DNA of 64,000 nt, from positions 14,212,928 to 14,276,927 of the forward strand of contig CM037867.1 in the NCBI GenBank assembly GCA_021292105.1, read 5' to 3'. The notes beneath the pieces were generated by a model. It made no database searches. It worked only from the letters and a program-made list of their open reading frames with translations, and was not told where the DNA came from. This document shows, piece by piece, positions 7,716 through 61,127 of this stretch. Position 1 is the first letter of the stretch. Each line of letters opens with the position of its first letter. The translations under genes and the position numbers were made by a program. This DNA is from Anadara kagoshimensis. Taxonomy: Eukaryota; Mollusca; Bivalvia; Arcoida; Arcidae.

Positions 7716-8099
7716 CCTGAGTCAAGGGAGGAGTTAAATTGCTTAACTTAATTTTTCAGTTTTCAGTTATTTATTTGCCTTTTGGATTATGGTTTATTTA
7801 TTATTGATAAATAATTGGACCGTATGTTTACGTTTGATATTAATAAATTATTGAGATTTAACTGCAATTGTTTAATCAACGATGAACAATGTATACAATA
7901 TGTAAATGTTACTTGAGAATTTTACCAAAACAATTTGAAAATTAGTTGCTCAAGGAAACAAATGTAACTCTATTTATATCAAAATGGCGCCATTAGCATT
8001 TCTAGTCAACTTAAGGTACTCTTTGAAATAAATATCCGTAGCATTTAAAGAATTAATAATTGAAACAGATAAGAAATTGTCATAAGTCTGGTCGATTAG

Positions 8100-8225
8100 G
8101 CAAAATGCATTTTGCTCAGTTTTACATCTTTAAAATATTGCGTTTCCACAAATTTGATCCAAGCAATACTGATGAGGAATTTTATTCCAAAACTGGAAAA
8201 TTAAAACAAATTTAGTAATAATCAT
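8100..8225 (+). mobile_element. HHR element fragment with decayed ribozyme
   Basis: CTGATGA and a perfect stem II (GGAAT/ATTCC) are kept at 8169-8188, but GAAAC reads AAAAC, and the GTC and stem I partner are lost. Confidence 0.6.
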
Positions 8226-8321
8226 AATTAATATTGAACATAAGTGGTAGATATTTAATGGAACTTATTGTACAGTGACAATTTATCTTCTTTAGTAGAA
8301 ATGTTATCATAAAATGTTACG

Positions 8322-10639: not shown

Positions 10640-12080
10640 GTAATGTAGTAGAAATTCATTTGAAAACCGTTTGGTTGAAATGCGTGAAAGAGGGATATAA
10701 TTAGAAATTACCTACACAAGAGTGAAGATTTATAATAAAAATAAAGTAGGATTGATAACTTAAGAGTTTATAAAATATTTGTTTGCATTTTTTAAAGAAA
10801 ATTTTTGCAAAATTACACGTGTTGGGGGAAAAAGGTTACACCTTGTATACGAATTAATTTTTAAAAAATGAAAAGATATTAAGATAGTCAACAATATTAT
10901 TCAACATCATATTGCAGTGCAAAGAGGGCAGAGTTTGTTAAAGAAATACAAGGTTTTTGAAAACTGGATAATTTACGGTGGAGGTTTTCTATGATTTGTT
11001 TTCCTTTTAAAATGCGTGTACCATCGTGATAGTTCATATTCTAAGGCTACCAACGATCCAGAAGGATTATAAAGCTAAGTTTGTATATTACTTGATTATT
11101 GTTTGAGGCATATTCGTCTTTATATATTCAACATTGTTCAAACCAAACAATATTTCCACCTCAATTCAAATAGAACAGTATTGTGTGACTGTGCACTTTT
11201 AGTGACCTATTGTATTTTGGATTATAAGTGGCCTTAGAATATAAATATCACTGGTAATTAAAACTGGTATAATATGTAATTTGGTTGCTTGATGGACTAA
11301 ATATTTAGTTATATAATCTGATTATAGCAGGTGGTCTCTGATGGTTATCAAAATAATTTTGAAAGTAGAAATTATTAAAGTCGTTAAGCACTCACTTAAT
11401 GTAACAATCGCCTATTTAAAACAGACCTTAAAATATGATATCAGTACTACTTGTAGTAGACGGGACGATCAATGCTCCTGACTCGTAAATGTATATATCT
11501 TTTCATGCAAGTCAATAGTCAATGTATGAGTAGGACCGCTTTCGGTCACACTTGTAAATGATGTTAATGGCTAAAGTAATCTACAGAGTTTCACATAGAA
11601 TAGATTCAGCATGTGTTCAAGCTTAACTGTGAATACTAGAAGGGCATGGTTGGCTGTATCACGAAGAAAATCTTTATATTTTTGACACAGTAATGATCAA
11701 TAAACCTTCATCACTACATCATATACAATATTACAAACTAATGTTAAAGATGTAACAGAAAACTGGCATAGAGCTTTACTAATTCATTTCTCTAAAACCA
11801 CAACATCAGGCAACAAAAAATCGTTTCCTCAGATTGTAGAAAGTTAACAAGCAAATTTAAATGTAATTGAAGCCATACATCAATTCTATTCAATACATTA
11901 TTCTATACTCTATAGTTTACCTTTAACACTGAAATATGATCAGTTGCAACAACTTACATACAATGCAGAATGCTGATTCTAGATTGCTCGCACTCCATAG
12001 TTTGATCGGAGTTGTTTATCTAGACGGGAAATGTCAACAAACAGGAACATACAAAAGCAAGCACGTAGCATAAATTACAT
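10640..12080. other. No gene recognised
   Basis: AT-rich DNA. Only a short HHR-tail-like segment (AATTAAAACTGGTATAATAT near 11260) is recognisable. Confidence 0.5.
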
Positions 12081-12084
12081 ATTA

Positions 12085-12150
12085 TACCAGTTTCAATTTT
12101 ACAGCACTGGACAGTTGTTTAGTAACTTAATACCAACTAGACTTGCCAGT
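12085..12150 (-). mobile_element. HHR element 3'-end fragment
   Basis: On the minus strand, GTCCAGTGCTGTAAAATTGA and the tail AAACTGGTATAATATGTAAT are kept; the ribozyme core is not. Confidence 0.5.
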
Positions 12151-13699: not shown

Positions 13700-14680
13700 T
13701 CGCTAGATGAAAATCAATTGTTGTATTTTATCATCAAATTTAATTGTTTGTGCTCAGGACTGTTATAAGATAAGTATAGATTTCATAAACCGGTGACTCA
13801 AAACAATTCGTTTAAAATGTCTATTTCTAGAAATTTGACAATGTCTGTCTAACATCGATCCCAAAAAACAATTACATTAAATTGTTTAATATTTTTAAAT
13901 ATGTAATACTAGATTGTTTATAACTTATTGGATTTCATTTTTTTCAGTATTTTATAAAGTAATTTTAAACCATTATTAATTTTACAAGTCGTATTTTTGT
14001 AATCATTTAATTTGAAAGAAATACAATATGAAACATATGTTAAATGTAATTGTCTTTTAATTTCAATCGACTTTTACAACATTAGGTATGTGATAAAATG
14101 TGCACGCCACGCAATTGTATGGACCAAAATTCGCAAATCCACAGACTGATTACATGTTATAGTCAGACAAGAGGTTTTTATTCTCCTAGTGGATCATGTT
14201 TACCACAATTTTATAGGTTTTTTTTAGTTTTTTTGTTGTTTTAGTGATTGTTTATACATTGTATTTGTAATAATACTAATGCCATAAAGCAATTAGTTGT
14301 TGATACTGAAATCGTGGAGTATCTATATATTCTGTCTTTTATGTATTAACACAGCATTTTGTTCGAGTTTTTATTCGTATTATAAGATAAATCAAGGTAT
14401 CATAACAGTCCATTTATATATATGTAAAATTAAAACTGGTACAATATGTAATAACCAAGGCATCAGAATTAGTTATCGTCACATTGTTTTAAGGACAAAA
14501 TACTATTAGATTTGAACCATATGTTGTGTTAAAGAGGCTCACAAGTCCTATCTTGTCAAGAAAGTGTAGAAAATTAACTATTTAAAGAAGTTCATCGTGT
14601 CAAATGAGCAAACGTCCCAGCCTTTGTTGTAGAATTAAAAAGTTGTTAGTGTTTAATTTAAGAAAGAACTATGTAAATGT
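13700..14680. other. No gene recognised
   Basis: AT-rich DNA with a short HHR-tail-like segment (AAAACTGGTACAATATG near 14432). The 70-aa open frame at 14297 has no domain signature. Confidence 0.5.
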
Positions 14681-15755: not shown

Positions 15756-16071
15756 ACACCTTTCCAATCATCAACTCTCTGTATTGAAGTAGCAATGAAT
15801 TGTGATAATAATGGAACATGGAAGCCAAAATTATTGTAAGACTATACTTTAGAGCATAGTTAAAGTTTTTAGGAATTTTTTAATTTTTAGATCTACGAAG
15901 CAAATAGTTTTGATTAACAATGTTTATCTGACAACAAAATGTATTGTCTCTAGGGTTAACCATATCTGCGGGGATGCCTAGTCCACTACATAAGTTCCAG
16001 TCCAGCTTTTGTAATGTTTAAATAAATTGTTCACCTCACACGCTATTTCCTTTCACTTTGTATATTGTATA

Positions 16072-16780: not shown

Positions 16781-16964
16781 TGTAATGAATCCAAAAGGAG
16801 AATGAATTATGCTAGTGAGACGAATGGTTATGATGAAAAATGAAAGTTCAACCATGAAACCGACTAGCAAAGGTTAGGTGTCCTAATGCGAATTTAAAAA
16901 TTAATAAAGCAATGGCGAAAGTTGTTGATAATTGTTTTAGTAGTTATTTATGCAAACAATTACA

Positions 16965-17195
16965 CAGCACTAGACAGCCGTTTTAGAATACAATAATACA
17001 ATTCGTAGTGCTTGGGCAAATTTGTAAAACCAATTTTTTTTAAAAGTTCATTAATATATTTTACCAAATTAAGCTAAGGAAATACGTTGCATGAGGGAGT
17101 AAACTTAAGTTTTTATGGGATTTCAAATTTCATTAAGCATCAAATTTAGACAATAGTATATTTCTGACAGTAATACACAATCATTGCCTACTGTG
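16965..17195 (-). mobile_element. HHR element with lost ribozyme core
   Basis: Carries the family order in minus orientation, from GTAGGCAATGATTGTG (17165-17180) to AGCACTA and GTCTAGTGCTGTG. CTGATGA has been replaced, so only stem I and the GTC triplet remain. Confidence 0.62.
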
Positions 17196-17924
17196 TTTGT
17201 GACACTTATGCAAACAATTGAGTTATTTCATGACATTCTTTGTTCTTCGTCATACACTTGTTATATTTGTACTTCAAAAGAGTATCAAATTTTAAATAGA
17301 CAGAATTCTGTCACATGACATTAGCAAATGATACCAATTTCAGTATACTAATTGCTATTTTTCGGTCCTAAAAGTCTAATAATGTTTGTACAACAATATA
17401 CAAAGCTAAATAATTAGATATATGTAGCATTAGGAAAGAGTAAGACACAAAAATTACAAATCCCACCTGGGTAAAAACATAAGCTAACTGCATATACATG
17501 ATTATCTTTAATTTGAACCAAATAATTAGGTATACATGAACCTATCATTGAACAAAGAAAAAGAAGTGATTGTTACAAATATGATTCAGTCTAAATATCT
17601 AGACTTAAATTCCAGTATAATTGCCTAATTACATCAGCTAATTACATATACTGATATCATATTGAAGGTAATTTTTACATTCCGGTTCTACCTGGTATTG
17701 TTCGTATTTATCGACGACATGACCAATTTCCATGTCAAATATAGACCGTTATAGAAATGATAATCGTTGTGCTGGAAACCAATTACACAATCCTCATACA
17801 AGATATAAGTGATTGTTGATTTGTCAGAACATATCTATAAACACTTGTAAAATTAGAGAGGGGTTCTGAAAAATGAGCCTATTTTTTTTCAAAATAGACT
17901 TAATAGGGTTTAAGGTTCCAGTCG

Positions 17925-18518: not shown

Positions 18519-18629
18519 ATACAATCACTCATTACTTGAGTTACAAGATTGAGAAATATCAAATTTAATTTCAAATGGAGTATGTTTTGTACAGAATTAG
18601 GTTTAGCGAGTTTAAATACGCGTATATCT

Positions 18630-18740
18630 GTGGCAAAACTTTAATTTTGCACCACTAGGCAGGCATTTCAGAAAATTCCTCATCAGTAGTGCTTGGACCA
18701 AAATTGTAGAAATTCAAATATTTCAAGATGTTTAAATGAA
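18630..18740 (-). mobile_element. HHR element fragment with decayed ribozyme
   Basis: The minus strand reads AGCACTACTGATGAGGAATT, then GAAATGCCTGCC and TAGTGGT (ribozyme 18648-18693). The core CTGATGA is kept, but the cleavage triplet is GCC and GAAAC is GAAAT. Predicted inactive. Confidence 0.65.
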
Positions 18741-19671
18741 AAAAAGAAGTGACAAAATGTATGTAACGAAATCCAACTATGCTAATGATCAACTAAACGT
18801 GAGTTGACGTTTTTCTCTTTTGCGCCAAAAATTATTCAATCAAAACCAAACATACATATAAATGTCCAAATGACATAACCGGTTTATAACCACTTGTGAA
18901 AAAATCACTAAAACCGATTCAATTTCACAAACAAGTGAAAGTCATTACATTTGAGCGCCTGTCAATCGACAGAAAATAAATAAATAATTCTCTGCACAAA
19001 AAAGCTAATTTAACTAAAGTCAATTTCAAAACAAGTGAATATTTGACAGTTGGGTGTCTGTCGATCATATCATATGCAACTGTGGTTATTAATAAATGAA
19101 AACGTTATATAGGCTAACAAGCACCCGGGCATAAGACGACATTGAATTCAGCACAAGTCTTTTTTTTTTGTCAATTTCTTGACTTGAAGTGCCATAAATG
19201 ACAATCATAATTACTTATGCATTTGTACATTACCTAATTTAAGCAGTACTAGTTGGGTGATGTATAATCCCCGATGAATTGTTAAGACTTACAGAAATTA
19301 GAAAAAAAACTTTTCAAAATTAATATTTGTTACAAGAGTTATTGACAAGGCAATTTGTTTCCAACGTGTTTTATCACAAATAATGTTTGACATTTAGTTA
19401 AAATCAATGAAACAAAACAAGTACCTTAATTAAGGCCGTTTACGTAGACCAAATCTTCAATATAAAACGAGTAAAATGTCAAATGGAAACTTTTATCATC
19501 TTCTTTATATATTAAAAAGTAATAGTTCAATATTGCGGTTTATGAGTGAGTAGAAAAGTATGTAATCGAAAATGAGAATTAAAGAAACAAAGAACTTTGT
19601 CACGCCAAATATGTAATAGTTTAATACTACAGCTTATGAGAAAGAGGATAAACTTAACCGGGTTTTAAAAC

Positions 19672-20999: not shown

Positions 21000-21137
21000 T
21001 TAGATATATTTGTTGTCCGCGTAGTTCCATGTTCCTTTCATTCTAACTTTTGATTTTACAATTGGTGGGTGCGTGTAGGTAGCTAAAAAGGCAGTGCTTA
21101 CCCTTCCGGAGCACTCGACCTCAATTCCCTTGTGGTT
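21000..21137 (+). mobile_element. RT-A fragment directly behind another copy
   Basis: AGTTCCATGTTCCTTTCATT, GTAGGTAGCTAAAAAGG and CTTCCGGAGCACTCG follow immediately after the 3' end of the copy at 20545. Confidence 0.62.
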
Positions 21138-21814
21138 TAACTTAACAATAGACAACCTTTTCGGAGTTAAATTCATGATAAGTACTGCTCTGAACAAAAT
21201 CTAAATTGTTAATTTAAATACTTATTAAAACTAGCATAATATGTAATTTATGATATCGAAATAAGATTAATAACTAATAATTGTAATAATTTATCAAAAA
21301 TCGTAAACATACTTGAGAAGAGAATATTATATCATAAACGTTGTCTGGAGATGTGATTGAAATTTATTTTTTATCGTTTTTTGAGGATCTCGTTAACTTC
21401 AAATCTTGTTGACCTAAAAAGCAAACATTTTAACAACATAAAGCTCATAACACAGATCGATAATTCAAACACTTGTAACAGATTACTAGACTGACATGTA
21501 GAAATTTCCAACTAATAAATCTGTCAACTTTAATAAAATGTTCGTGGATCGTAATCTAGCTAACACGAACACGTTGTAATAATGCTTCATATTACTGAGG
21601 TGTTATGAAATATTGCCGACATTAATTCAATTCAGTAGCGAGAACAAGATAAATTACTTCCGTGAATATAAATTGAAGTTCTAATGTTGAGTATGTATGG
21701 ACATCGTAGAAATGATAGTTATGCATTATTTAAAACAATATTTCATGCTAACACATTTTAAAACTTGTGTAAAGATGGTGAAAAGAAATACAATGATTTA
21801 TGTATAACATATTA

Positions 21815-21995
21815 TGCCAGTTTACATTTTACAGAATTCGACGGACGTTTCAAAAGATAATTCTTTATCACTAGTCCCAAGACCACAATTTTGAAACCAA
21901 AATTTATTCAAGGGTTTGAAAAAGCTAAAGAACCAAATTTGTCTAAGAAAATACTTTGCATGAGGGAGTATACCTTAGTTTTTGTAATTTTAAAG
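21815..21995 (-). mobile_element. HHR element, decayed, first of a close pair
   Basis: Family blocks TTTTGGTTTCAAAATTGTGG-like and TATACTCCCTCATGCAAAG are present; ribozyme remnant at 21832-21878. A second copy in the same orientation lies about 381 bp away. Confidence 0.58.
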
Positions 21996-22027: not shown

Positions 22028-22150
22028 CATACAACACACTCGCACTTCACATGCATACACGAACTTGTTCACAGATTAATTCATTGAGATAAATTAAGTA
22101 GTTTTCGTCGCGAATAGGTGAAAAATTACTGATGCGACGTTCGCAAAAAT
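22028..22150 (+). mobile_element. SINE-B fragment
   Basis: CGCACTTCACATGCATACAC, GAAAAATTACTGATGCGACG and nothing of the head; the 3' tail is lost. Confidence 0.6.
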
Positions 22151-22189
22151 CGTTTACATTCGTACATTGCTAAAATAAAAACATAATAA

Positions 22190-22330
22190 TCACTAAACTG
22201 GCTTTAATTTTGCAGCGCAAGACAGCCATTTCAAAATAAAATCTCTTCAGTGCGCAGACCGAAATTATGGAAATTTAAATTCTTTTGAAGATGTTCATTA
22301 TTATATTTATAATATCCAGCGGTAATGCAA
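22190..22330 (-). mobile_element. HHR element, decayed, second of a close pair
   Basis: Ribozyme remnant at 22213-22256 (GCGCAC and TTGCGC still pair as stem I; core lost). With the copy at 21815 it forms a pair spaced about 381 bp. Confidence 0.52.
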
Positions 22331-22334
22331 TTGT

Positions 22335-23595: not shown

Positions 23596-24079
23596 AATTT
23601 AAATATCCACGGTTACAAAAGTGGTTGTGGTGCACGTCTGATGTTCTAAGTTTTAATGTATATTATTGACAATCTAAATTAACATCTTTGCGAAAATCTT
23701 TAAACTTTAATCGCTGTTGCTTTTAGACAAACGATAAAAAATATTGGTGAAGAATAATGATACAGAAATAGATGCATGGTTAAAAAAGTAATACAAAAAA
23801 GAAAAACAAATCAATAAAATTAACAAAAACGAAAAAAGATATTATAGTGAAAGTTATAGTTACATGTCACCTTGCTGCTTCGTGTGATGTCATATCAACA
23901 CGTCCAGCTTACGTCAGATGACAGATAACGTGACTTAAAATACATTTACTGTCTTTTCACTGCAACCTTAGATCAAGAGTTGCAAAAGAAAAAAATGATA
24001 CAGACAGTGATGCATCATTTAAAATAATTATACTTCAATCGTTATCTAATTTTTGTGAATAATAGAATAAATTCCAATA

Positions 24080-24315: not shown

Positions 24316-25540
24316 GGTATGTAATGATTATTTATGTTTGAAAAGCGCCGTCTCAAAATTATTCGTGAATTTTATGTGTCAAAGAAGAGTTGAACCCTGT
24401 TAGAAAACAACACGACATCAGAAGCATGCACCACACAGCTTGGTACCATCTTAGTTATTATGATTGGTGCACGTCTGATGTAGGTAGTCAAAATTTTCTT
24501 TACATTTCAAAATTTACATAGGAGCGAAATTCTTATATCTTTATCACTTTTGCTTTGATACAAAATACAAAAAAATTACGGTGAAAAATAATGATACAGA
24601 AAATGGTGCATCGTTAACAAAGAAATAAAAAGAATAAAGAAAGAAAAAGGGAAATAATGTATAAAAGTTACATGTGCTCTTGCTGAGTTGTTCAATAGAT
24701 TTACCAACACTTTTAACTGGATGATAGAAAACATGACTAAATGTATATTTATTGTCTGAACACTACAGATCTACCAAATTGAATGCAATTTTAAAATATT
24801 TCTACTATCTGTATGTCTCTTTGGAAGCTTTAAAAATACCGATAATTAAAAAAACAACTACTTTGAGACAAAATGCAAAAACATTATAATGAAGAAAAAT
24901 GGTATGAATATTGATGCGTTATAAAAAAGAAATTAAAAGAAAGAAAAAAGATTATAGTTACATGTCACCTTGCTGCTTTGTTTAATGGTTTTACCAACAC
25001 TTTAAGGTTATATCGAATTATAGCGAACTTGGCATAACCCATATTTATTATCTAATTGCAGCAGGTTTAGACAGATCTATAGCTCTATTTCTACTATCTG
25101 TATTCCCGTTTGAAAGTCTCTTAAAATACGGATGATTAACAATATAAATTTTAATTGCAAAAACATCATGATGAAGAAAATTGGTATGGACAATGATGCA
25201 TCATTAAAACAGAAATAATGAGTAGAAATGAAGAAAAGAAAAATGATGATAGTAACAATAAAAAAGAAAAAAAAATTAAAAGAAGTAAAAGTCCTTAATT
25301 TCAATAAATGTTATCGTCAATCTAAATTTACATCGTTGCGAAAATCGTAAATCTTAATCGCAGTTGCTTGCAGACATAAGACAACAATTATAGTACAGAA
25401 AAATGTCACAGAAAAGATACATGATTTAAAAAGGAAATATAAAAAAATAAGAAAGAAAAAATGTACTATCGTTAAAGTTATGGTTACATGTAACCTTGCT
25501 ACTTCGCTTAATTACTTTACCAACTATAGCTTACATCGGA

Positions 25541-25855
25541 GTCGATATCTGTGCTGGTGGCTGGTGTCCCGAGGATATTACAAACTAAGTAGGCAAAAAT
25601 TGTGTATTGTTGTCTGAAATACACTATGGTATAAATTTGCTGCTAGTTAAAATTTGAAATTCCTCAAAAACTAAGGTATATTCCCTCATGCAAAATATTT
25701 CCTTAGCTTAATTTGGTAAAATATTTTTTTTTTACTTTGGGTATAATTTTAATAATTTTGGTTTCATAATTTTGTCCAAGCACTACTGATGAGGAATTCT
25801 ATTCCGAAACGACGGCCGTCTAGTACTGTGAAATTAAATTTTGTATAATTTACCC
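25541..25855 (+). mobile_element. HHR element with 13-bp target duplication
   Basis: The best-preserved member of the hammerhead-bearing family. AGCTTACATCGGA occurs on both sides (25528-25540 and 25856-25868), and the flanks join into a normal unit of the surrounding 24-27 kb repeat, so this 315-bp block is an insertion. It contains GTAGGCAAAAATTGTG, then a block shared by all copies (CCCTCATGCAAAATATTTCC), then the ribozyme, then a short AT-rich tail. It has no open reading frame, so it is non-autonomous. Confidence 0.8.
25779..25827 (+). ncRNA. Hammerhead ribozyme (type I), core intact
   Basis: Self-cleaving RNA motif read directly from the sequence. Stem I is AGCACTA (25779-25785) with TAGTACT (25821-25827), one mismatch. 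Core CTGATGA is at 25786-25792. Stem II is GGAAT/ATTCC with a TCT loop. Core GAAA is at 25806-25809. Stem III is ACG/CGT with a 5-nt loop. The cleavage triplet GTC is at 25818-25820. All invariant core bases are present, so activity is plausible. The short stem III is like that of hammerheads that cleave better as dimers. Confidence 0.85.
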
Positions 25856-26039
25856 AGCTTACATCGGATGGCAGATTAATTGACTGACATGTATTTTTAT
25901 TTAATTGCAACATAATAAAGATCAATGGCTGCATTTCTAAAATAATTTTACGATCGGTATGCCTCTTGGAAATTCATATTATTGGATAAAGTCTGTTAGA
26001 CACGAATATTTTATACATCTGAAGTCATTTCATATATAA

Positions 26040-26215
26040 TATTCCTTAAAAACTAAGCTATGCATTATTGTTCGAAGTATTGCTGGATTTCTATTTTTTT
26101 TTCATTTCAAAATTTAAAAATATTTGGAATTCTACACTTTTGGTTTGAGCACTACTAATGGGGAATTTGAGTTCAAATTGACCGTCTGGTGCTGCAACAT
26201 AAAACAGTTAAGAAA
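26040..26215 (+). mobile_element. HHR element, decayed copy
   Basis: Shares the CTTAAAAACTAAGCTATGCA-like block and the ribozyme region with the copy at 25541. The pair may be an old tandem dimer or two separate insertions into the same array. Confidence 0.6.
26148..26193 (+). ncRNA. Decayed hammerhead ribozyme copy
   Basis: Stem I halves AGCACTA and TGGTGCT still pair, and GTC is kept at 26184-26186, but CTGATGA has become CTAATGG and GAAAC is lost. Predicted inactive. It lies about 366 bp downstream of the intact copy, in the same orientation. Confidence 0.65.
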
Positions 26216-26894
26216 TAATTATTATAATCTGTATATGAGAAAATACAGAGACGCTTGAACAGTATTTTATCGAAAAAGTTGAGTACTACTAAAACTACGA
26301 CACGTTGTGTACGGCAAAGATTCTATATCACCAAAAGCATGCACCACACTTGGTACCGTCATAGTTTATTATTAAGACTGGTGCTCGTCTAGGTACGTTG
26401 TCGCATAATGTGTTACCATCAGCATGAATTGACAACATAGCGAAAGTCTTAAAAATATCAATGATTAAACACACATAGCTTTGAGACAAATAAGGAAATA
26501 ATAATGAAGAAAAATGACGAAGGCAGTGATGTTTGATTTATAAGACATACAAAAAAATAGAAAAAAAGAAACAAGAAAAAAAGATGATAGTTACAATAAA
26601 ACAATAAATAAAAAGACAGAAAAATGATTAAAGTTACATGTCGCCTTGCTGCTTCCTTTAATTGCTTTACCAACTCGTCTAGCGTACATCGGATGATAGA
26701 TAACTTGATTTAACTGATATTTATTGTCTGAACACTGCAAGTTAGATATATCTATAGCTGTCTTTTTAAAAAAATATTTCAATGATCTGCATCTCCCTTG
26801 GAAATTGTGGAAAGTCATGTTATTGGATAAATGTCGTAAAAGAGAGAGATTTTTAATCTTCGGAGTTATTTCATTTCTGCTCATGATTGAATAA

Positions 26895-30510: not shown

Positions 30511-30650
30511 AATAAGCATCAAGTCTTATTTTCGCTCGATTTATTGAAAATTGACACGTATGGAGTCTATGCAAACGATATAATTCTCGAATAATGTCTC
30601 CATTTGGATCGATTCTCAATTAATCGAACGAAAAATAAGACTCGGTGCTT
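30511..30650. mobile_element. Fold-back element with about 40-bp arms
   Basis: The left arm AAGCATCAAGTCTTATTTTC and on into CGATTTATTGAAAATTGAC is inverted on the right (CTCAATTAATCGAACG, ATAAGACTCGGTGCTT). Confidence 0.7.
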
Positions 30651-30779
30651 AATCTATAGTTATAATTAATTTTTGTAAATTCGAGTGACTAAACATTGAA
30701 TATTTTTGATATTGTATTATGTATTAAGTAAACATCGAATTGTGCGTATGGACGCTTGTCATTAGTTCCAACTGGTCGG

Positions 30780-30980
30780 CTTGATTATGGCATCATGCAA
30801 ATTATTTCCTTAGCTTAATTTGGTAAAATATATTTTGGTCCTTTGGGTAGCTATTCAACGTCTTCAAAATAATTTTGGTTTCATAATTTTGGCCAAAACA
30901 CTACTGATAAGGAATTGTATTCCGAAACGGCCGTCTAGTGCTGTAAAATTAAAACTGGTATAATATGTAATTAATTTAAA
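30780..30980 (+). mobile_element. HHR element
   Basis: Contains the family blocks CATGCAAATTATTTCCTTAG, then TTCATAATTTTGGCC, the ribozyme, and the tail AAAACTGGTATAATATG. Target duplications were not found. Confidence 0.75.
30897..30942 (+). ncRNA. Hammerhead ribozyme with G8-to-A core change
   Basis: Stem I AACACTA/TAGTGCT has one mismatch; stem II GGAAT/ATTCC, GAAAC, loop GGCC and GTC (30933-30935) are perfect. The core reads CTGATAA instead of CTGATGA; the changed G is normally essential for cleavage, so it is predicted inactive or very slow. Confidence 0.75.
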
Positions 30981-33425: not shown

Positions 33426-33894
33426 ACGTCTTTTTCACATCCGGTTATTGACTGACCCTATAAGTCGAGATTTCTCATCAGGATTGGGATCGGCTAAACT
33501 GACTTTTTTTAATCGTTTGCATTTAATGATAACCGATTAGGAAATAAGTAAGATAATTAGGTCCCTCTGTACATGTATACTCTAATAACACTGCTTGATA
33601 GAATTTGTAATTATACATCTCACCCCCACACACAAAAACAAAATGGACAGATAGTAAATTTTGTAATGAGGTTTTGATCTGAACAGGCATTAAGATCATG
33701 TCTAATATTAAATTAAGATTTGCCCCTCAGTTGCTTTCCAAACACCGTTGCTAAGCAACAGTCTATGCTAACGTTTAACTTGGGATGTGTTTACAAAGAC
33801 TATAACTAGCATCCTTGGGGTATCGTTAAGCCAAAAGGCAATACATAGTATTGTCGGATAAAAAATATTCATTAGAATTAGCTGTTTATGTTTA

Positions 33895-34092
33895 AGCTTT
33901 AAATTGCCTTAAAAACTAAACTTTGCTTTGTAGTTCAAAGTGTTGGCCAAGGTGGGTTGGGTAGCGTGCATTTCGGTCCTTCTGTTTTATTTATTTTGGC
34001 CAATCGCGGGTGTTTGGATTTTTGCAGTTTTGGTCCAAAACGTACTGGTCAGAAGTTGCTAGACTGTCATCTGGTGCTGCAGAGTTGAAGTA
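33895..34092 (+). mobile_element. HHR element, old copy
   Basis: TTTTGGTCCAAAACGTACTG and TCATCTGGTGCTGCAGAG are recognisable; the ribozyme core is lost. Upstream it keeps GCCTTAAAAACTAAACTTTG. Confidence 0.5.
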
Positions 34093-34354
34093 GATTTAGT
34101 AAAAACTAAGAATTTATTATACAGAAAACATCATTACTTATTTATATTGCGCCAAAGTAGTACAAGTATATAGTGCATCCTTATATCCCCTTCAAGAGAT
34201 ATATCTAACATACAGATTGTTGATAAGAATTCTTACTTAAAATATTAAAGAAATAGTTTTATTTATATATTTTTGATATCTTTTCAACAACTTTCAAAAC
34301 CTATCCTGGATTTAACTTCCAAATTCATGATCTCTGAAAACTTCAACTGGTTTT

Positions 34355-40971: not shown

Positions 40972-42419
40972 TTATAATTGTGCAGCTCCATGCAAGTTGG
41001 TAACAGTAAAAATTTCGTCAGCTGTATCAGTCGTATCTTCTTCTGAAATGGTTGATTCTTCGTCGGCCGTCACTGTAGATGTTTCTTCTTCCTCATCCTC
41101 TTCTTCTTCTGTTGCTGTGTCTGTGTCTTCGTCGCTGGAATCGGTATCGTCCAAGTTTATTACAAATTTCTCTATTTCTTCATCGACTGCGATGTCATTT
41201 TTCCAGTAATCGGTTTCTATTTTCTTTACGTGTTCAACACACCTTTTCCATTTTTCTGTCGATATGTCTTTCAATTGTTTTTCTGCAAGTTGTTGCACGT
41301 CCGAAAGTTTAAATTTTAAATTTTGTGAAGCAACATATGATTTTAGATCAGCCCAAATTAATTCTATAGGATTTAAGTCTGCATGATAAGGTGGTAATCT
41401 TAAAATTTTATGTCCATGTTCTCTTAATATATAATCAATTCTGTAGGAAGGTGGAATAATTTGTTGTTTGCATATTGTAAGTAACTGTGCGCGAACCATG
41501 TCTTCTGTAAATTTAATGTTGTGTTTTGTAAGCCATTCCTGAATGTTTTTTCTTCCACGATGTTGTTGGTTTTTTGTCTTCTTGGACGTTATGATAAGAT
41601 GCATTATCGACTACCAAGACGGAATTTGGTTCAAGGTTTGGAATTAATTTTTCGCGAAGCCATTTAGTGAAATTCTCAGCATTCATTTCATGATGATAAT
41701 CACCTGTTGATGACTTGGCTTTATATATAAGGCTTGCATTAGGAACAAAACCCTTTTCTGAACCAGCATCAACAACAATCAGACGGTCACCTGCTCCGAT
41801 TGGAACACTTAAACCGTTCCCATCCAGCTGCCAACACTTGGGTACAGTGTGTGAAGAGTTTATATACGTTTCATCCATATAAATAATGTTGTGTCCAGTT
41901 TCTCTAAGTTTTTTAATTTCGCGAAGGTAATTTATTCTTTTTGATACGATATCTGGTTTTTCCATAAGGATTTTTCTATTTGTGCTGCATTTTTCCAGTT
42001 AAACCCCATTTTTTAAGCAATTTTCTGAGAATTGTTTTACCCCCCTTAAAGTCAATTTTGTTAATTATTTCCGAATGAATAGCATTTATAGTTGGAAGAA
42101 CGCGTTTATTTAAATACATATTAATTATTGTTCTTCTAATTACGCAGATATCAAAATCATCAATAAAAAATTTATCTGATCTCTGTTTTCTATCAGCCTG
42201 TTTGGTTTCTATTCCGAACGATTTTAATCTTGATAATGTTCTCCTCGGCACACCCGTCATTGCACTTGCTATCTCCAAGGGACAGCTGATGGGATTTATG
42301 AGACATTTTTGTTTTGCCTCATCAAAGCAATGTTTTACAACATTGATGGCAATTTGTTTTGCCTGTGAATTTAATACAATCTTTTTATTTTCAGACATCT
42401 TCTCGGTTATGAAAATCAC
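40972..42419 (-). pseudogene. Transposase of the DD80E element, interrupted by two +1 frameshifts
   Basis: DDE transposase that would cut and rejoin the element's own ends at TA-rich targets. Three overlapping reading frames (41976-42419, 41513-41965, 40972-41604) form one protein of about 481 aa once two single-base differences are allowed for. In order: an N-terminal helix-turn-helix-like region (IASAMTGVPRRTLSRLKSFG); catalytic D1 in YMDETY (codon at 41873-41875); D2 in VVDNASYH (41606-41608); E in HADLNPIELIW (41362-41364); then a very acidic tail rich in Asp, Glu, Ser and Thr. About 80 residues separate D2 and E, far more than the 34-41 of usual Tc1/mariner enzymes. Both breaks lie in A runs on the coding strand (41990-41994 and 41546-41551), each with one base too many. 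They may be real decay or assembly homopolymer errors. All three catalytic residues are present. Confidence 0.88.
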
Positions 42420-43721
42420 ACGTGTTGTCTCGTTTTCGCCTTATACCTATTATACTATATTCTCACATTTTTACGAGGGCGTGACCATTCAACTCGTTCG
42501 CATGTTCTAATTAATGGTCCAATTAACTTAATAATTAACATCTTGTCCCTTTTAACTCTCAGATCCACCCAACGCCATGATATGTTGGAATTCATATCCT
42601 ATTGTATTATATTATTAATTAGAACAAACACCTGCTGCAATCTCTTGCATCACAAATTGGAAACTGGTACATTTGATTCACTTTAATTTTGAATCTATTA
42701 ATAAAAATTATAAATGAATGCATTAATATGAGTTGTGTTGTTGGACATAAAATATTTCACTTGTAAGAAAGAATTGTATTTTTATATTTCGCACAGCGTC
42801 ATGTGGAGCATTTTGAATTTTAACAGAGAAAAATATTAAATTTAAAATTATGCACATGACAACAATATTAACTGTCTATTCCCAGATATGAATAAATAAA
42901 ATAAATTAATTAAAAAAACAATAAATAAATGAATAAACACAGTATAAAATTTATTGATGTTGGCATCCTTTTCCAAATTAATATAGGTTTACAGTTTGAT
43001 TTTTTCGTATGACGCGGCGGTGAGGTACGGATTAATAATAGTGATTAGTCCCAAATAGTGCTAATATTTTGATTTCTGTATGAAACGAGACGTTAAAATT
43101 TTGCCCTGTGCTAATTTTAAATGTTATGTAGTTCTGGTAGAAATAATTTCCACAAGAATTTTAAAATTTAGGTTGTTCATACATTTACAAGATAGAAATT
43201 ATTAATTATTAGCCGATAGCACATTTAAATAATTAGTATAGATTCATTTATTTTTTTACTTTTTAATTGAAAAGTTTTTATAATAAAAATTAAAAACAAA
43301 ATTAGATAAAATTAAAAAATATATATGTATGACCGGTATTGTTCGAACTCACTTGTGACAAAATTATATAGCTGTCTACTAACTGTAAGATATGTTACAT
43401 ACCACTGAGCCAAGGAAGACAGTAACCTATCCTATCAAATTAAAGGTATTAAGGACAAATACCTTGTTATATCTTCAGACAATTCGTTCCACAGTTATGT
43501 GGAACTTCACAAAAATTATGCAGAAATGAAAAATTTCATGGAATATTTAAAAAGTTTCAAATAAAGAACATAAATGAAAATGTCCAAGATAAGTGGAATA
43601 TGATAAATATTTATATTTCAACAAAAATATGTATGAAGGTGCAGCATGGACATTGGCGAGTTGTTCAATGTGCGTGTTTCATGAGTCCGAGTTTACAATG
43701 TTTATTTACAAAATGAATAAG
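42420..43721 (-). other. Non-coding 5' region of the DD80E transposon
   Basis: About 1.3 kb between the transposase start and the right terminal repeat, expected to hold the element's promoter. No second gene is visible. Confidence 0.6.
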
Positions 43722-45085: not shown

Positions 45086-45489
45086 GTGCTGTTTTGCTCA
45101 TTAATGCATTCACGACGATTGTTATTAAAGTTGACTTTAGTCTGTATGTTGATACATACATAAAAATCATATGTATTTAAAAATATAGATTAATGAAAAT
45201 CTAGTGATTCCATGGATACCAATTCATTCGGCTGATTGTGGGAATTATTCGACCGATATATGTACATGGATACTAAGTACTTCGGTTAATTGCAGGTAAA
45301 TTATTAATTTATTATTACTTTTCTTTCATTTATCTGAATCAATATTTTAAACTTCAGGTTGTATTAGTTATTACATATTTTATACATAAATGCGAACTAT
45401 CATTAACCTAGGAGGCAATGATAGAATTGTCAGATAAATATTGTTTATACAATATCTCCTTATTATGTTTTAATCACCAAAAACAACAG

Positions 45490-45670
45490 CTATGGTTTAT
45501 CGTCCAAAGTATTCCCTAAAGTGGATTTTGTTAAATAAATTTTTGTCCTTCTATTTCTTCTATTTTTATCATTTTAACATCTTGAAAATATTTGGATTTC
45601 AAAATTTCGTCCGAGCACTACTGAGGAACTTTATTCGAAACGGCCTTTTGCTGCAAAATCAAAACTTGAA
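45490..45670 (+). mobile_element. HHR element with deleted ribozyme core
   Basis: AGCACTA at 45614 and GAAACGGCC remain, but the core has a three-base deletion (CTGAGGAA) and the GTC triplet is gone. The upstream family block TATTCCCTAAAG is kept. Confidence 0.6.
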
Positions 45671-45784
45671 TAGTGTCGATGCATGCATAATCATTGATTT
45701 TGCAAATACTCAGTAGATTGCGCAGGTATTTTAAGTCGAGAGTAAACTGAAAAATAGGGTTGTTTATAACTAAATGACCATCAA

Positions 45785-46212: not shown

Positions 46213-46544
46213 TATGATTAATTCCCATTATCTTTATTGACTAAATGGGAACAACAACAATGGAATTGCTTTTAAATTGTTTCACAGAGACTGATGCATT
46301 CAATGTATTTTCATGGATGGATAAAATGTATTTTCATGGATGGATAATTTAGTTGCTTGCAGGTATATCGTTAATTCACATACGTAAAATGAAGTATAAA
46401 TCAGATTTAAAACTGAATGGAGAACAGGTGTCTATAAAGTGATACGAAGAACAATAATATTATGAGTGCCATATGCATGGATTGTGATTGAAACTTTGGC
46501 TGGTTGTATACTGACTCGCATACCAAAATAAAACAAACTTGTTT

Positions 46545-46730
46545 TTTTTTTTTTTTAATTTTGCAGCACTAGATGGCCTTTTTGGAATAACATTCCTTAT
46601 CAGTAATGGTCCGGCCAAAAGTGTGGGATTCCAAATATTTTTGAGATGATAAAATGATAAAAAACATGGCTTATGTTTTAGGAGTTTCAAACTTTATAAA
46701 ACATAATTTACAATGTTTATCTGACAACAC
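46545..46730 (-). mobile_element. HHR element with decayed ribozyme
   Basis: The minus strand reads ACTGATAAGGAATGTTATTC with TCTAGTGCTGC downstream: G8-to-A change as in the 30.9-kb copy, GAAAC lost, ATC in place of GTC. It is followed by an A-rich run on the minus strand. Confidence 0.6.
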
Positions 46731-47289
46731 AATGTATTGACTCCTGGATTAATGATTATCCCACTATCTCTCATGAATATTATCTATTATGAAAGGTAGC
46801 ATTGATTTGCGTAAAAAACAATTACATGGATAAATACTTTTCTTGTTTGTAAGTGTATTATTTATTCATACTAAAGAAACATGTTTATCAACCAGCTGGA
46901 AAAACAAAACAACAAGGCTAAGTGTATTTTAATACATTTGCAGAGACTGATATTTCAAAAACAATTTTATGGTTAGATACTTTGGATGATTTAAAGACTC
47001 TCATTTATTTATATTTCACATGCATAAAAATAACTAACTTGATGGACGACAAGTGTGTGAAACTTGATAAACGTTATCCATAATGATATAAAACTCATAT
47101 GTATTCATTGCTTCTACGGTTGAGTTGATTAATATACAAAAACATAACAAGAAACTCATTTTATTTTTAATTAATTTGCAAAAATTGGTATAAAAATGCC
47201 CTTTTGATTTTGCACATGCATATACAAATGAACCCAAAATACAAGAAGCGTATTTAAATTGATTCGTAAAAAATAATGCGTAAAATATA

Positions 47290-50089: not shown

Positions 50090-50275
50090 TATATTATACC
50101 AGTAATGATTTTACAGCACTGAACAGGCGTTTCTAAATGCAATTCCTCATCAGTAGTACTTAGACCAAAATTGTGAAACCAATTTTTTTCACAAGACGTT
50201 GAAAAAATATTCAAAAGGACCAAAATATATTTTTTACCAAGAGAATACTTTGCATGAGGGAGCATATCTTACTAT
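50090..50275 (-). mobile_element. HHR element
   Basis: Minus-strand copy with the tail (ACTGGTATAATATAC), the ribozyme, TTTTGGTCC-like block and CTCCCTCATGCAAAGTATTC in the expected order. Confidence 0.72.
50115..50160 (-). ncRNA. Hammerhead ribozyme, core kept, weak stem II
   Basis: On the minus strand: AGTACTA, CTGATGA, a weakened stem II (GGAAT/ATTTA), GAAAC, GCCT loop, GTT as cleavage triplet, and CAGTGCT. Stem I has one wobble and one mismatch. The core is intact and GTT is an allowed triplet, so weak activity is possible. Confidence 0.65.
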
Positions 50276-53227: not shown

Positions 53228-53555
53228 TAAATGTTTCATATTCTCCTAACAGTGTACGTTTTGATTATTTTCAAGTTTTAGCATGGATTAAGCAATCTAT
53301 GGTCGAGCTGATCTCACTAGATTTTGATTATAGAATACCAAATATTATAGTTATAGTAATATAGAAGGTCCAAAATGGATCGGAGTTCGTATATTGCATC
53401 AATGGTCTTAAGTAGCTAGTGAAAATATGTTTCATATCTCTCCAACGTTGCATGTTTTGATTATTTTCAGATAATGTCACAGATTAATATAATCCTACAC
53501 CGGTGACAGTGTAAGATTGAAAAATCTCAAACGAGGATGAGTATTTTCCTGTCCA

Positions 53556-53615
53556 GACCAAGATTTCGGTTTCTTTTCGTTAGCTCAGTGTTAAACTTTC
53601 GACAGTTCTGTACTG
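53556..53615. mobile_element. TcM MITE right-end fragment upstream of the GPCR acceptor
   Basis: A solo right end (TTAGCTCAGTGTTAAACTTT through TCTGTACTG then TA) stops about 30 bp before the acceptor tract. It lies in the open extension of the GPCR reading frame and would encode a MITE-derived N-terminus if the intron were retained. Confidence 0.7.
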
Positions 53616-53644
53616 TATATGTTTTATGTTTCTCATACACTATA

Positions 53645-53662
53645 TATTTTGATTATTTTCAG
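53645..53662 (+). promoter_or_regulatory. Predicted 3' splice acceptor of the GPCR exon
   Basis: A T-rich tract ending in ttttcag lies 24 bases upstream of the ATG at 53687. Similarity to the upstream 200-bp repeat copies continues across this site, so the acceptor looks repeat-derived or was copied into the repeats. No transcript evidence is available here. Confidence 0.55.
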
Positions 53663-54979
53663 ATAGAACCACAGACTAAACATTCCATGGCCGCCGATAT
53701 CACCAATTTGACAGTGTATATAAACACATCGGATATAAATATATCCTTAAACTATGTGGAATATCAGCTCTTCCTGAAGGATTTACCCGCCTTCATTTAT
53801 CTCGTTGTGCTGTTTTTTGTCGGAACCATCGGAAATATCCATACATTAGTTATATATTATAAGCAGTTCTCGGCTTCGAACCACAGAACCATTGTGTTGG
53901 CGCTGTCGGTTATAGATTTAATCGGATGCACTGTTGCTGTTCCGTATGACATACTGGACATGCGGCACTATCTGACGATTCCGACGGATTTTAACTGTAG
54001 GTTCTTTATTTTCTTGGATTTTTTCACCGGAATTGGATCCGTGGTTTTATTAGCGTTTATTGCTTTGGAAAGATTTAGAAAAATATGTAAACCACACAGC
54101 AGGCAATTGACCATAAGTGAAACAAAATCAGGCTGTTTGTTGATTATCATTTTCTCCGCCGGCGCCTCCGCTCCTTGCCTCCTGTTATACACACAGGCAA
54201 TGGAGGAAACTGAATATCCGGGAATTTATAGAACGATGTGCGTTGATGCCAAAAATAGTGTGAAAATGTTTTATTTTAGAATATATAATACACTTTTGTT
54301 AGGCCTCTCAGCCATTTTGTTAATTATCTGTGTAATATTATATTTATTTCTGAGTAGTAAATTACGAAACCATCGGCGCCGGTTGTCAAATGTCCGCGTA
54401 TCATTTTCACAAGAAGCAGTCAGGAGGACGAACTCCGACCCCAAAACATCCGATACCCAAGATTCATCCAATCAAACGGGCGATACGAAATCTACTTATC
54501 AAAATGGAGTTTATTTAAATATAGATGTAAATGTTGAACCGGAACAGACAACGGTTCAGTGTTCCGAATATGAAGTTAAAAATGATTCTGAACAGCCAAA
54601 AATTCCAGCGGAGGTTAGACTCTTAGCCAAGCAATCAAGCAAGAGAGAAAAGCATTTACAACGCTCAGAGCGGATTACGTTGGTTTTTTTAGTGACAACT
54701 TTTGTATCATACGGGTGTTTTTTAACCACAGTCGTTACTGAATTCTTATGGAGTTGGGGTCACAATTTTGCAACGAACTTAGGAGCTGTTTTTGCTTTTA
54801 TTTTGCGTTTTCAATTCATAAACAACGCAGTTAATCCCATTGTGTATTACGTATTAGACAACAGATTTAGAAAAGAAGTGAAACAATTATATATTGATCT
54901 TTTTAGAAAATACTTCAGGAGAGAACCAATCAGAAGACAGAGTTTGATATCAGTCGGGTCAAATTTCAAATTTATCTAG
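53663..54979 (+). CDS. Rhodopsin-family (class A) G protein-coupled receptor, main coding exon
   Basis: Seven-transmembrane plasma-membrane receptor predicted to signal through heterotrimeric G proteins; ligand unknown. The likely start is the ATG at 53687 (context ccATGG), giving 430 aa. The exon probably begins at 53663, after a pyrimidine-rich tract and CAG acceptor ending at 53662; the reading frame stays open upstream to 53537, but that part is a MITE end. The N-terminus has three N-glycosylation sequons (N7, N13, N18). TM1 carries GN (N50); TM2 LSVID (D77); a TM3 cysteine (C104) can pair with C185 in extracellular loop 2. The TM3 end reads ERF (128-130) instead of DRY. Intracellular loop 3 is long and polar (about 225-328). 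TM7 has NPIVY (383-387), followed by an FRKE helix 8 and a basic RRQS site near the C-terminus. TM6 lacks CWxP and TM4 lacks the usual Trp. Family certain; subtype (peptide or amine-like orphan) not assignable. Any upstream non-coding exon was not found. Confidence 0.9.
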   Translation: MEPQTKHSMAADITNLTVYINTSDINISLNYVEYQLFLKDLPAFIYLVVLFFVGTIGNIHTLVIYYKQFSASNHRTIVLALSVIDLIGCTVAVPYDILDMRHYLTIPTDFNCRFFIFLDFFTGIGSVVLLAFIALERFRKICKPHSRQLTISETKSGCLLIIIFSAGASAPCLLLYTQAMEETEYPGIYRTMCVDAKNSVKMFYFRIYNTLLLGLSAILLIICVILYLFLSSKLRNHRRRLSNVRVSFSQEAVRRTNSDPKTSDTQDSSNQTGDTKSTYQNGVYLNIDVNVEPEQTTVQCSEYEVKNDSEQPKIPAEVRLLAKQSSKREKHLQRSERITLVFLVTTFVSYGCFLTTVVTEFLWSWGHNFATNLGAVFAFILRFQFINNAVNPIVYYVLDNRFRKEVKQLYIDLFRKYFRREPIRRQSLISVGSNFKFI

Positions 54980-55437: not shown

Positions 55438-55732
55438 TAAACATGGATTGGTATGCTTGTGTTTGTGTTTAGTTAAGTCAGACAGATTTATAAAGACATA
55501 TGGAACTTGTTTAAACAATTATATCATGATTTGAGTATCAAACAGAACTTCTTGATATTAAAAATAACTGTTTCTCATTGATTTTCAAATCCATTAAGGC
55601 ACGATAGTCATAAAGCATCAGACACTGATTAATATTTATAGAACAGTATAATTGACTGTCAAATGTAAAATATGAGTACTTCGATTTAATATCCCGTCAC
55701 GTGATTTATTTAATCACTGAACAAATGAGATA

Positions 55733-57663: not shown

Positions 57664-57874
57664 ATAGAAAGAAGTCGCCATGATATGTCTACAAGCAAGG
57701 TCAGTGGCCGGAAAGCTCACGGAAAATAGACAGCAATTGCCGAAAAGCCGTCGACTGTCGAAAGTTTAGCACTGAGCAATCTGCTGAAATCTGTCTAGAT
57801 ATAGCTAACGAGGGGCTGAGATGTGCTGCGCGTAAGCGTCGGCTTAATTTTAAACTTTCCACAGGTCTGTACCG
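55733..57874. mobile_element. TcM MITE copy expanded by the 76-bp array
   Basis: The array begins at a TcM terminal repeat preceded by TA (55731-55732). A right terminal repeat (ACTTTCCACAGGTCTGTACCG) followed by TA lies at 57875-57876. The whole block can therefore be read as one MITE whose left end was amplified internally. The 57664-57874 segment is unamplified body with another partial end near 57750. Confidence 0.65.
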
Positions 57875-60708: not shown

Positions 60709-61127
60709 TATGTATACTCTTTATCTAATGTGTATAAAAGTCATAACAACAAGTGATTGGAAACTTACTGGAAAATTATTTTCACTTTTATGTATTCTAA
60801 TCACGAGTCAATATAATAATAAGGGATAACATACCATTACGAACATAAACCATAAAAAAGTATTAATATAAAAACATTAAGAGCCAATGTAAGAGAATGC
60901 TGGCATATAAAGATGATAAATTATAAAAAATATTAATATAAAAACATTTATTAATCGCAAAGTGTTCTTTTCTGTTCGCTAATCAACATTTTTAATGTAA
61001 CCCAGTATTTTTTGCAGAGTAAAATATGCAATTTTATGTAGTTAAATTGATGGCGATAAAATGACTCCAAAAATTTTTTTTTATTTTAGTTCTGAAGTAT
61101 ATTTAAAGTCCACATTTACAATTTCGC

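What the first reader, a model, noticed from the sequence alone, without database searches (positions are those of the whole stretch)
25779..25827. Type I hammerhead ribozyme with complete catalytic core in a dispersed repeat
Seen directly: paired AGCACTA/TAGTACT, CTGATGA, a five-pair stem II, GAAAC, a three-pair stem III and GTC in the right order. The same architecture recurs with different lesions in at least ten other places. Hammerheads in Penelope-like elements and in short retrozyme-like repeats of metazoans are established knowledge; whether this particular family is described is unknown to me.
Basis: partly seen in the sequence, partly recalled or inferred. Interest (0 to 1): 0.88.

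Follow-up and report, generated by a model that had tools for sequence, protein, structure and literature searches.

The report
Worn ribozyme retrozyme with Penelope-like ending
The window holds a worn copy of a small self-cutting RNA element that is very numerous in this animal genome; most young copies end at one fixed point just past the ribozyme, as Penelope retrotransposons of the same genome do, which hints at the enzyme that spreads them.

Summary
The motif is real: type I hammerhead at 25779-25827, predicted cut after C25820. This copy is worn (C·A mismatch in stem I, 3-nt insertion in stem III) and gets no Rfam hit. It sits in a 315-bp insertion (25541-25855) with a perfect 13-bp target-site duplication, inside another repeat. 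Fourteen further relatives in the window are mostly decayed.

The window's genome was searchable. The family is a non-coding unit of mostly 335-339 bp, found singly, in multimers and in rows of at least 13 units. Its 39-nt ribozyme occurs 2404 times exactly (reversed control 0); four intact units match Rfam Hammerhead_1 (28.2 bits, E 1.8e-4, below the 34-bit cut-off). This is a metazoan non-LTR retrozyme, a known kind.

Less expected is the insertion geometry. Of 69 young insertions examined, 59 end at one base, 36 nt beyond the cleavage site (67 within 2 nt), while 5' ends scatter; 30 are multi-unit. Two Penelope-like families of the same genome also mostly end at one point beyond their own hammerheads (+46 in 43 of 46; about +71 in 26 of 40). 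I infer reverse transcription from a fixed internal site through the ribozyme junction, probably round a circle, probably by a Penelope enzyme. Cleavage, circles and enzyme are untested.

The parts
25779..25827 (+). type I hammerhead motif of this copy; predicted cleavage between C25820 and T25821
   Evidence: lesions seen by comparison
25541..25855 (+). whole inserted element (315 bp), one near-complete retrozyme unit, about 85% identical to unit U of L004
   Evidence: TSD; similarity
25821..25855 (+). tail: stretch from the cleavage site to the insertion's 3' end (35 nt here, 36 nt in the family)
25528..25540 (+). left copy of 13-bp target-site duplication AGCTTACATCGGA
   Evidence: (p 0.015 against random flanks), letters
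25856..25868 (+). right copy of the 13-bp target-site duplication
25479..25527 (+). left part of another dispersed repeat interrupted by the insertion; relatives near 23884, 24695, 24985, 26661
25869..26033 (+). right part of that interrupted repeat
26053..26204 (+). second, older copy with mutated ribozyme (CTAATGG); I do not read its 369-nt spacing to the first as a tandem array
30789..30971 (+). 5'-truncated copy, 93% to U161-337; ribozyme with CTGATAA and AACACTA
16962..17205 (-). copy with perfect 14-bp TSD AATTGTTTGCATAA (17206-17219 and 16948-16961); its 3' end lies only 11 nt past the cleavage site, an exception to the +36 rule
50091..50273 (-). 5'-truncated copy with full core CTGATGA, GAAA
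63706..63910 (+). copy with CTGCTGA core change
18639..18796 (-). copy of a second subfamily (TGCAAAATTAAA tail), shortened stem II
21807..21995 (-). decayed copy
22193..22296 (-). decayed copy, second subfamily
33809..34095 (+). long decayed copy
45398..45675 (+). long decayed copy, second subfamily
46553..46756 (-). decayed copy, second subfamily
8088..8207 (+). decayed 5'-truncated copy
21134..21200 (-). short decayed copy
12075..12131 (-). short copy starting inside the ribozyme
15828..15974 (-). fragment of the 5' half of the unit, no ribozyme
14423..14452 (+). tail-only fragment (U308-337)
11256..11281 (+). tail-only fragment (U313-337)
21224..21251 (+). tail-only fragment (U314-337)

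Best explanation
The motif belongs to a metazoan non-LTR retrozyme. SHOWN from sequence: a non-coding unit of mostly 335-339 nt with one type I hammerhead, present singly and in head-to-tail rows; most young insertions end at one base 36 nt 3' of the cleavage site, with scattered 5' ends, multi-unit inserts that begin with a partial unit, and occasional target-site duplications. INFERRED: tandem copies are transcribed; the hammerhead (2-pair stem III with GGCC loop alone, or an 8-pair palindromic stem III in a dimer) cuts the RNA into unit lengths; the units are closed into circles; a reverse transcriptase starts at the fixed +36 site on a nicked AT-rich target, copies through the ligated ribozyme junction and round the circle one or several times, and stops anywhere, leaving 5'-truncated monomers and multimers. 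The most likely enzyme is that of a Penelope-like element, because Penelope-like copies in the same genome carry a hammerhead followed by their own fixed-end tail. The copy at 25541-25855 is one such insertion, now decayed and probably inactive.
For: Unit and arrays: (one row of at least 13 units, spacings 336-339). 2404 exact ribozymes, control 0. Hammerhead_1 match of four intact units, E 1.8e-4. 3' end exactly at U337 in 59 of 69 young insertions, 67 of 69 within 2 nt (18 of 20 exact among loci chosen by element similarity, 41 of 49 among those chosen by ribozyme); 30 of 69 multi-unit, 29 of these 30 with a partial first unit. Units inside an array more alike than between arrays in 23 of 29. 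TSDs of 13 and 14 bp in the window, 32 bp in L036, TSDs of 7 bp or more in 8 of 69 against 2.6 expected. Dimer fold of the ribozyme is the dimeric hammerhead, -34.5 against 2 x -12.3 kcal/mol. PLE copies of the same genome mostly end at one point after their hammerhead: +46 in 43 of 46, about +71 in 26 of 40. Literature: PLE reverse transcription starts internally and defines the tail (PMC11167929, section 3 read); mussel and axolotl retrozymes of similar size make circles (PMC7229834, sections 13-15 and 17 read).
Against: No RNA or activity data. The best Rfam score is below the curated cut-off, and none of 12 retrozyme and 6 PLE loci scanned reached it. No covariation signal and only slight extra conservation of the ribozyme in window copies (0.827 against 0.791, rank 21 of 192 windows). 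Predicted circle no more stable than shuffles (z -0.85). Most young insertions lack a clear TSD. In 6 of 29 arrays units are not more alike within than between. One window copy with a clean TSD ends at +11, not +36. Retrozyme and PLE tails differ in length; sequence similarity to the L106 PLE tail varies with the test (p 0.0008 to 0.24) and is not seen for L110, a relative of L106, nor for the families of L102, L103/L109 and L107 (p 0.085 to 0.95). A linear uncut multimer could serve as template as well as a circle: for the Anolis PLE the uncut RNA is the dominant substrate in vitro (PMC11167929).
Confidence: 0.7

Rival explanations
1. The copies are solo pseudo-LTRs shed by a Penelope-like element rather than an independent retrozyme; the ribozyme belongs to that element's pLTR.
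For: Same order, hammerhead then fixed tail, as PLE pLTRs (PMC3846280 passages); similar distance from the ATG in the core to the 3' end (65 nt here, 73 nt in the L106 family, by arithmetic).
Against: 450 exact unit-to-unit junctions and a row of at least 13 units at unit spacing, so without coding sequence between them; no plus-strand frame over 39 aa in the circular unit; a blastn of the unit against 12 PLE pieces found no pLTR-like match, only a separate retrozyme fragment beside L102 and short chance-level hits.
Confidence: 0.12
2. A LINE or another target-primed reverse transcriptase, not a PLE, moves the element in SINE fashion, starting at an RNA 3' end that lies 36 nt past the ribozyme.
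For: Fixed 3' end, 5' truncation and long TSDs in some copies are also LINE hallmarks (recalled).
Against: No poly(A) or simple-repeat tail at the family's 3' end; multi-unit inserts with partial first units; PLEs with similar hammerhead-tail geometry are present in the genome. LINEs of the genome were not searched.
Confidence: 0.15
3. DNA-level spread: a satellite moved by unequal exchange, extrachromosomal circles or a Helitron-like rolling-circle transposon.
For: Tandem rows and dispersed single units.
Against: One fixed end with scattered other ends fits neither random circle reintegration nor a Helitron with two fixed ends; TSDs of 13, 14 and 32 bp. Unequal exchange may still lengthen long rows.
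Confidence: 0.06
4. The hammerhead letters are a relic without activity in any copy.
For: No covariation, weak conservation, this copy not recognised by Rfam.
Against: 2404 exact ribozymes, and intact units match Hammerhead_1 over all 45 positions; related ribozymes cleave in mussel and, mainly as dimers, in axolotl (PMC7229834).
Confidence: 0.05

Closest known systems
Metazoan non-LTR retrozymes (mussel, about 350-390 bp; axolotl, 330 and 350 bp; Cervera and de la Pena 2020, PMC7229834)
   Same: short non-coding tandem repeats with one type I hammerhead, low GC (35% here), very many copies, weak stem III
   Different: sequence relation to the mussel families could not be tested; here the unit is mostly 335-339 bp, and a fixed insertion end 36 nt past the ribozyme is shown, a point not found in the sections and passages that I read
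Penelope-like elements with pLTR hammerheads and a 30-40-bp tail (PMC11167929, PMC3846280; also L100-L111 here)
   Same: hammerhead with short, mostly palindromic stem III followed by a tail with a fixed 3' end; 5' truncation
   Different: no reverse transcriptase or GIY-YIG gene in the unit; other sequence; tail 36 nt against 46 and about 71 nt in two PLE families of this genome
Rfam RF00163 Hammerhead_1
   Same: four intact units align over model positions 1-45
   Different: 28.2 bits is below the gathering score of 34; the copy of the finding gives no hit
Plant LTR retrozymes (PMC4918200, seen as search listing; described in PMC7229834 section 13 and PMC7761336 passages)
   Same: hammerhead repeats proposed to move through circular RNA
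   Different: plant elements have type III hammerheads, LTRs and 4-bp TSDs; the family here has a type I hammerhead, no LTR, and TSDs that are long or absent

Membership tests
Type I hammerhead ribozyme | CUGANGA and GAAA core with three stems in type I order and NUH cleavage triplet (recalled definition) | tested here: met
Type I hammerhead ribozyme | Rfam Hammerhead_1 at or above the gathering score | tested here: not met
   this copy: no hit; intact units 28.2 bits against 34, E 1.8e-4; none of 18 loci over the score
Type I hammerhead ribozyme | self-cleavage at the predicted site | not testable with these tools
   needs transcripts
Type I hammerhead ribozyme | compensatory changes in the stems | tested here: inconclusive
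   38 variants, 3 double-sided cells against 1.8 in shuffles, reached by 256 of 1000
Metazoan non-LTR retrozyme | non-coding tandem repeat of 150-450 bp carrying a type I hammerhead in each unit | tested here: met
Metazoan non-LTR retrozyme | no LTR; GC below 50%; TSD longer than 4 bp when present | tested here: met
   GC 35%; TSDs of 13, 14, 32 bp, often absent
Metazoan non-LTR retrozyme | abundant circular and linear unit-length RNA | not testable with these tools
   no RNA data held
Penelope-like element | ORF with reverse transcriptase and GIY-YIG endonuclease | tested here: not met
   longest frame 39 aa on the plus and 58 aa on the minus strand of the circular unit
Penelope-like element | hammerhead followed by a tail with a fixed insertion end | tested here: met
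   retrozyme +36 in 59 of 69; PLE of the same genome +46 in 43 of 46 and about +71 in 26 of 40
Helitron | both ends fixed, no TSD (recalled definition) | tested here: not met
   5' ends scattered, some TSDs

The most novel reading that the evidence does not exclude
Animal retrozyme circles are copied into the genome by rolling target-primed reverse transcription from one fixed internal site 36 nt past the ribozyme, by the enzyme of a Penelope-like element that recognises a short tail of its own kind; retrozymes would be the circular, non-autonomous partners of Penelope, and the hammerhead-tail block the shared signal.
Probability: 0.45. Interest if true: 0.8.

Novelty: new member of a known kind. 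Interest (0 to 1): 0.58.

Why it matters
[quoted passage not shown] PLEs were proposed there on other grounds. The fixed +36 insertion end and the matching Penelope geometry in the same genome give such a lead. They turn the question into a test on one RNA and one protein: does Penelope protein start reverse transcription at +36?

Tried and rejected
A 369-nt spacing between the two ribozymes near 25820 and 26186 looked like a tandem retrozyme; rejected, because the space between them reads as another repeat split by the first insertion. A ~380-nt spacing at 21840/22221 likewise: upstream of the first copy lies a different repeat, shared with 55184 and 58797. Head-to-head inverted copies as in PLEs: in the 59 loci then at hand, 9 held copies on both strands; in L037 a young copy lies inside an older one of the other strand, and no clear head-to-head pair was seen. 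Covariation, conservation and circle stability gave no support. Of 10 window ORFs scanned against Pfam one gave a GPCR and two DDE_3; no reverse transcriptase was seen among them. An excess of arrays starting at the cleavage site (3 of 30 within 2 nt, p about 0.01) would point to cut linear templates; the genome-wide count to test it was only partly answered (21 junctions of one variant; 450 of another; unanswered), so it is left open. The 5' ends of multi-unit inserts are scattered but not quite uniform (KS p 0.042). A first conservation script had its columns out of register and was replaced. In one search some cleavage positions were set wrongly; one search replaces it.

Full report
OBSERVATION. 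The letters at 25779-25827 are as reported: stem I AGCACTA/TAGTACT with one C·A mismatch (6 of 7 pairs), CTGATGA, stem II GGAAT/ATTCC, GAA, stem III ACG/CGT with a 5-nt loop, GTC with cleavage expected after C25820. Rfam finds no hammerhead in this copy at any threshold tried. Iterated nhmmer finds 15 copies of the repeat in the window, this one included. In most of them homology ends about 30-36 nt past the cleavage site, and their 5' ends differ; three tail-only fragments exist.

THE COPY ITSELF. The ribozyme lies near the 3' end of a 315-bp insertion, 25541-25855, with the perfect direct repeat AGCTTACATCGGA on both sides (25528-25540, 25856-25868). The insertion splits another dispersed repeat whose relatives lie near 23884, 24695, 24985 and 26661. 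A second copy (16962-17205, minus strand) has a perfect 14-bp duplication, and ends at +11 instead of +36. The other 13 of the 15 copies tested have no duplication that stands out (p 0.144 or more), as expected for old copies.

THE FAMILY. The element's near-full-length relatives among the 51 listed are 81-85% identical, and several stand head to tail. Most ribozyme spacings in the loci are 335-339 nt; L013 has 325 and L016 330. The reference unit U is a real copy, 337 nt of L004, with 35% GC. The family ribozyme is AGCACTA-CTGATGA-GGAATTGTATTCC-GAA-ACGGCCGT-C-TAGTGCT; its 39-nt part from CTGATGA on occurs 2404 times exactly, the reversed control never. One exact 48-nt string across a unit junction occurs 450 times; one row holds at least 13 units at spacings of 336-339. 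Four units of L002 match Rfam Hammerhead_1 from position 1 to 45 at 28.2 bits, E 1.8e-4; the gathering score is 34, and none of 12 retrozyme and 6 PLE loci scanned reached it. Compared with the family ribozyme, the copy of the finding has two lesions, the C·A pair and three extra bases in stem III. The circular unit has no frame longer than 39 aa on the plus strand and 58 aa on the minus strand.

INSERTION GEOMETRY. In 99 loci I found 103 distinct insertions, after removing duplicates by their flanks and dropping 7 that reached a locus edge. L001-L029 were chosen by similarity to the window's element (and re-fetched stretches); L030-L099 are 70 loci around the first-listed exact ribozymes, all on contig C1. 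So the set is enriched for copies with a ribozyme, not for a given end. Of 69 young insertions (91% identity or more) the 3' end is at U337, that is 36 nt past the cleavage site, in 59; at 336 in 6, 335 in 2, 332 in 1, 287 in 1. By set: 18 of 20 and 41 of 49 exact. Of 34 older ones 15 end at 337. The 5' ends scatter over the unit; 30 of 69 are multi-unit, and 29 of these begin with a partial unit. Their 5' ends are not quite uniform (KS p 0.042). In 29 multi-unit arrays compared, units within an array are more alike than units of different arrays in 23; 159 of 434 non-consensus cells are shared, 104 of them in L002 and L030. Duplications of 7 bp or more at the ends are found in 8 of 69, expected 2.6; L036 has 32 bp. 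The first base after the insertion is T in 54 of 69, which may be the unit's own next base.

READING. A fixed end with scattered other ends means synthesis that starts at one site and stops anywhere: target-primed reverse transcription. The start lies past the ribozyme, so most copies contain the intact cleavage junction. A cut linear monomer cannot give this beyond a 36-nt piece. A circle, or an uncut multimer, can; multi-unit inserts with partial first units fit repeated rounds on a circle. Dimer folding predicts the dimeric hammerhead as the best structure, -34.5 kcal/mol against twice -12.3; the monomer's best fold is not the hammerhead. Axolotl ribozymes of this class cleave poorly in monomeric and much better in dimeric constructs (PMC7229834, section 15 read).

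WHICH ENZYME. GIY-YIG, the endonuclease domain of Penelope-like elements (PLEs), is found at 50 places above cut-off, 150 of 248 candidates scored. Twelve pieces 3' of such places were taken. Nine of the 12 (L100, L102, L103, L104, L106, L107, L109, L110, L111) show a CTGANGA...GAAA hammerhead-like core, most with a short palindromic stem III; L101, L105 and L108 do not. For the family of L106 the genome search gives 46 non-self matches, of which 43 end at the same base, 46 nt past the cleavage site. For the family of L109, leaving out self and 6 local tandem matches, 26 of 40 end at one base about 71 nt past it, the others between query positions 187 and 206. For the family of L102 the ends are blurred by TA repeats. 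Published PLEs have an optional 30-40-bp tail that marks internal starts of reverse transcription (PMC11167929, section 3 read; PMC3846280, passages). So retrozyme and PLE share the order ribozyme, short tail, fixed end. The retrozyme tail resembles the L106 tail in register: end-anchored p 0.0008 and 0.001 with L106, 0.009 and 0.019 with L111; other forms of the test gave 0.017, 0.014 and, for L111, 0.24, and 0.0955. These are several tests on AT-rich sequence. L110, a relative of L106, gives 0.53, and the tails of L102, L103/L109 and L107 give 0.085 to 0.95. I take the geometry as the main argument and the letters as a hint.

KNOWN OR NEW. Short tandem repeats with type I hammerheads that make circular RNA are described in corals, mussel and axolotl (PMC7229834, sections 13, 14, 15, 17 read). 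This is a new member of that kind. In the passages found for truncation, junction, integration and target sites in that paper, and in those of PMC7761336, no fixed insertion end is mentioned; the latter says that no motif points to the autonomous partner. In the listings of searches I saw no title or start of abstract on this point; supplements and closed papers were not available, including the 2014 paper on PLE hammerheads.

LIMITS. Host unnamed; that it is a bivalve is only my guess from genome size and about 19 large contigs. No RNA or activity data. Covariation, conservation and circle stability gave no support. The genome search scores only its best candidates, so counts other than those of exact patterns are lower bounds. 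LINEs of the genome were not searched.

Noticed in passing
55727-57664: tandem array, 76-bp unit, 25.6 copies, 93% matches
   Followed up: no
58884-60709: tandem array, 123-bp unit, 14.9 copies, also reported with a 493-bp period
   Followed up: no
40972-42440 minus: decayed DNA transposon: two frames with DDE_3 matches and a third adjoining frame without a match
   Followed up: partly
53507-54979 plus: uninterrupted frame of 490 aa, rhodopsin-like GPCR, Pfam 7tm_1 E 3.8e-27
   Followed up: partly
30512-30652 and 2632-2726: long palindromes that ring weakly as microRNA precursors in Rfam, below the gathering scores; probably foldback mobile elements
   Followed up: no
G000 C17:4533875-4534026, C1:5484675-5484825, C14:52480599-52480739, C18:30409300-30409441, C15:11878092-11878233, C15:926149-926293: six head-to-head inverted pairs made of the ribozyme-tail block of the L106 Penelope family, about 140-155 bp each; 13 of the 46 matches start at query 87-93, at the ribozyme core
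   Followed up: no
L008 292-363 and 544-600: two tRNA-like matches above the gathering score, perhaps tRNA genes or a tRNA-derived SINE
   Followed up: no
L004, L009, L067: three multi-unit arrays begin within 2 nt of the ribozyme cleavage site, a possible trace of cut linear templates
   Followed up: partly
8077-8277, 18569-18769, 22131-22331, 26074-26274, 33960-34160, 45535-45735, 46484-46684: second subfamily of the element with a different tail (TGCAAAATTAAA and similar)
   Followed up: partly
L037 1348-1797: a young retrozyme copy inserted into an older one of the opposite strand; the older copy's two parts overlap by 8 unit positions, as a target duplication would give
   Followed up: no
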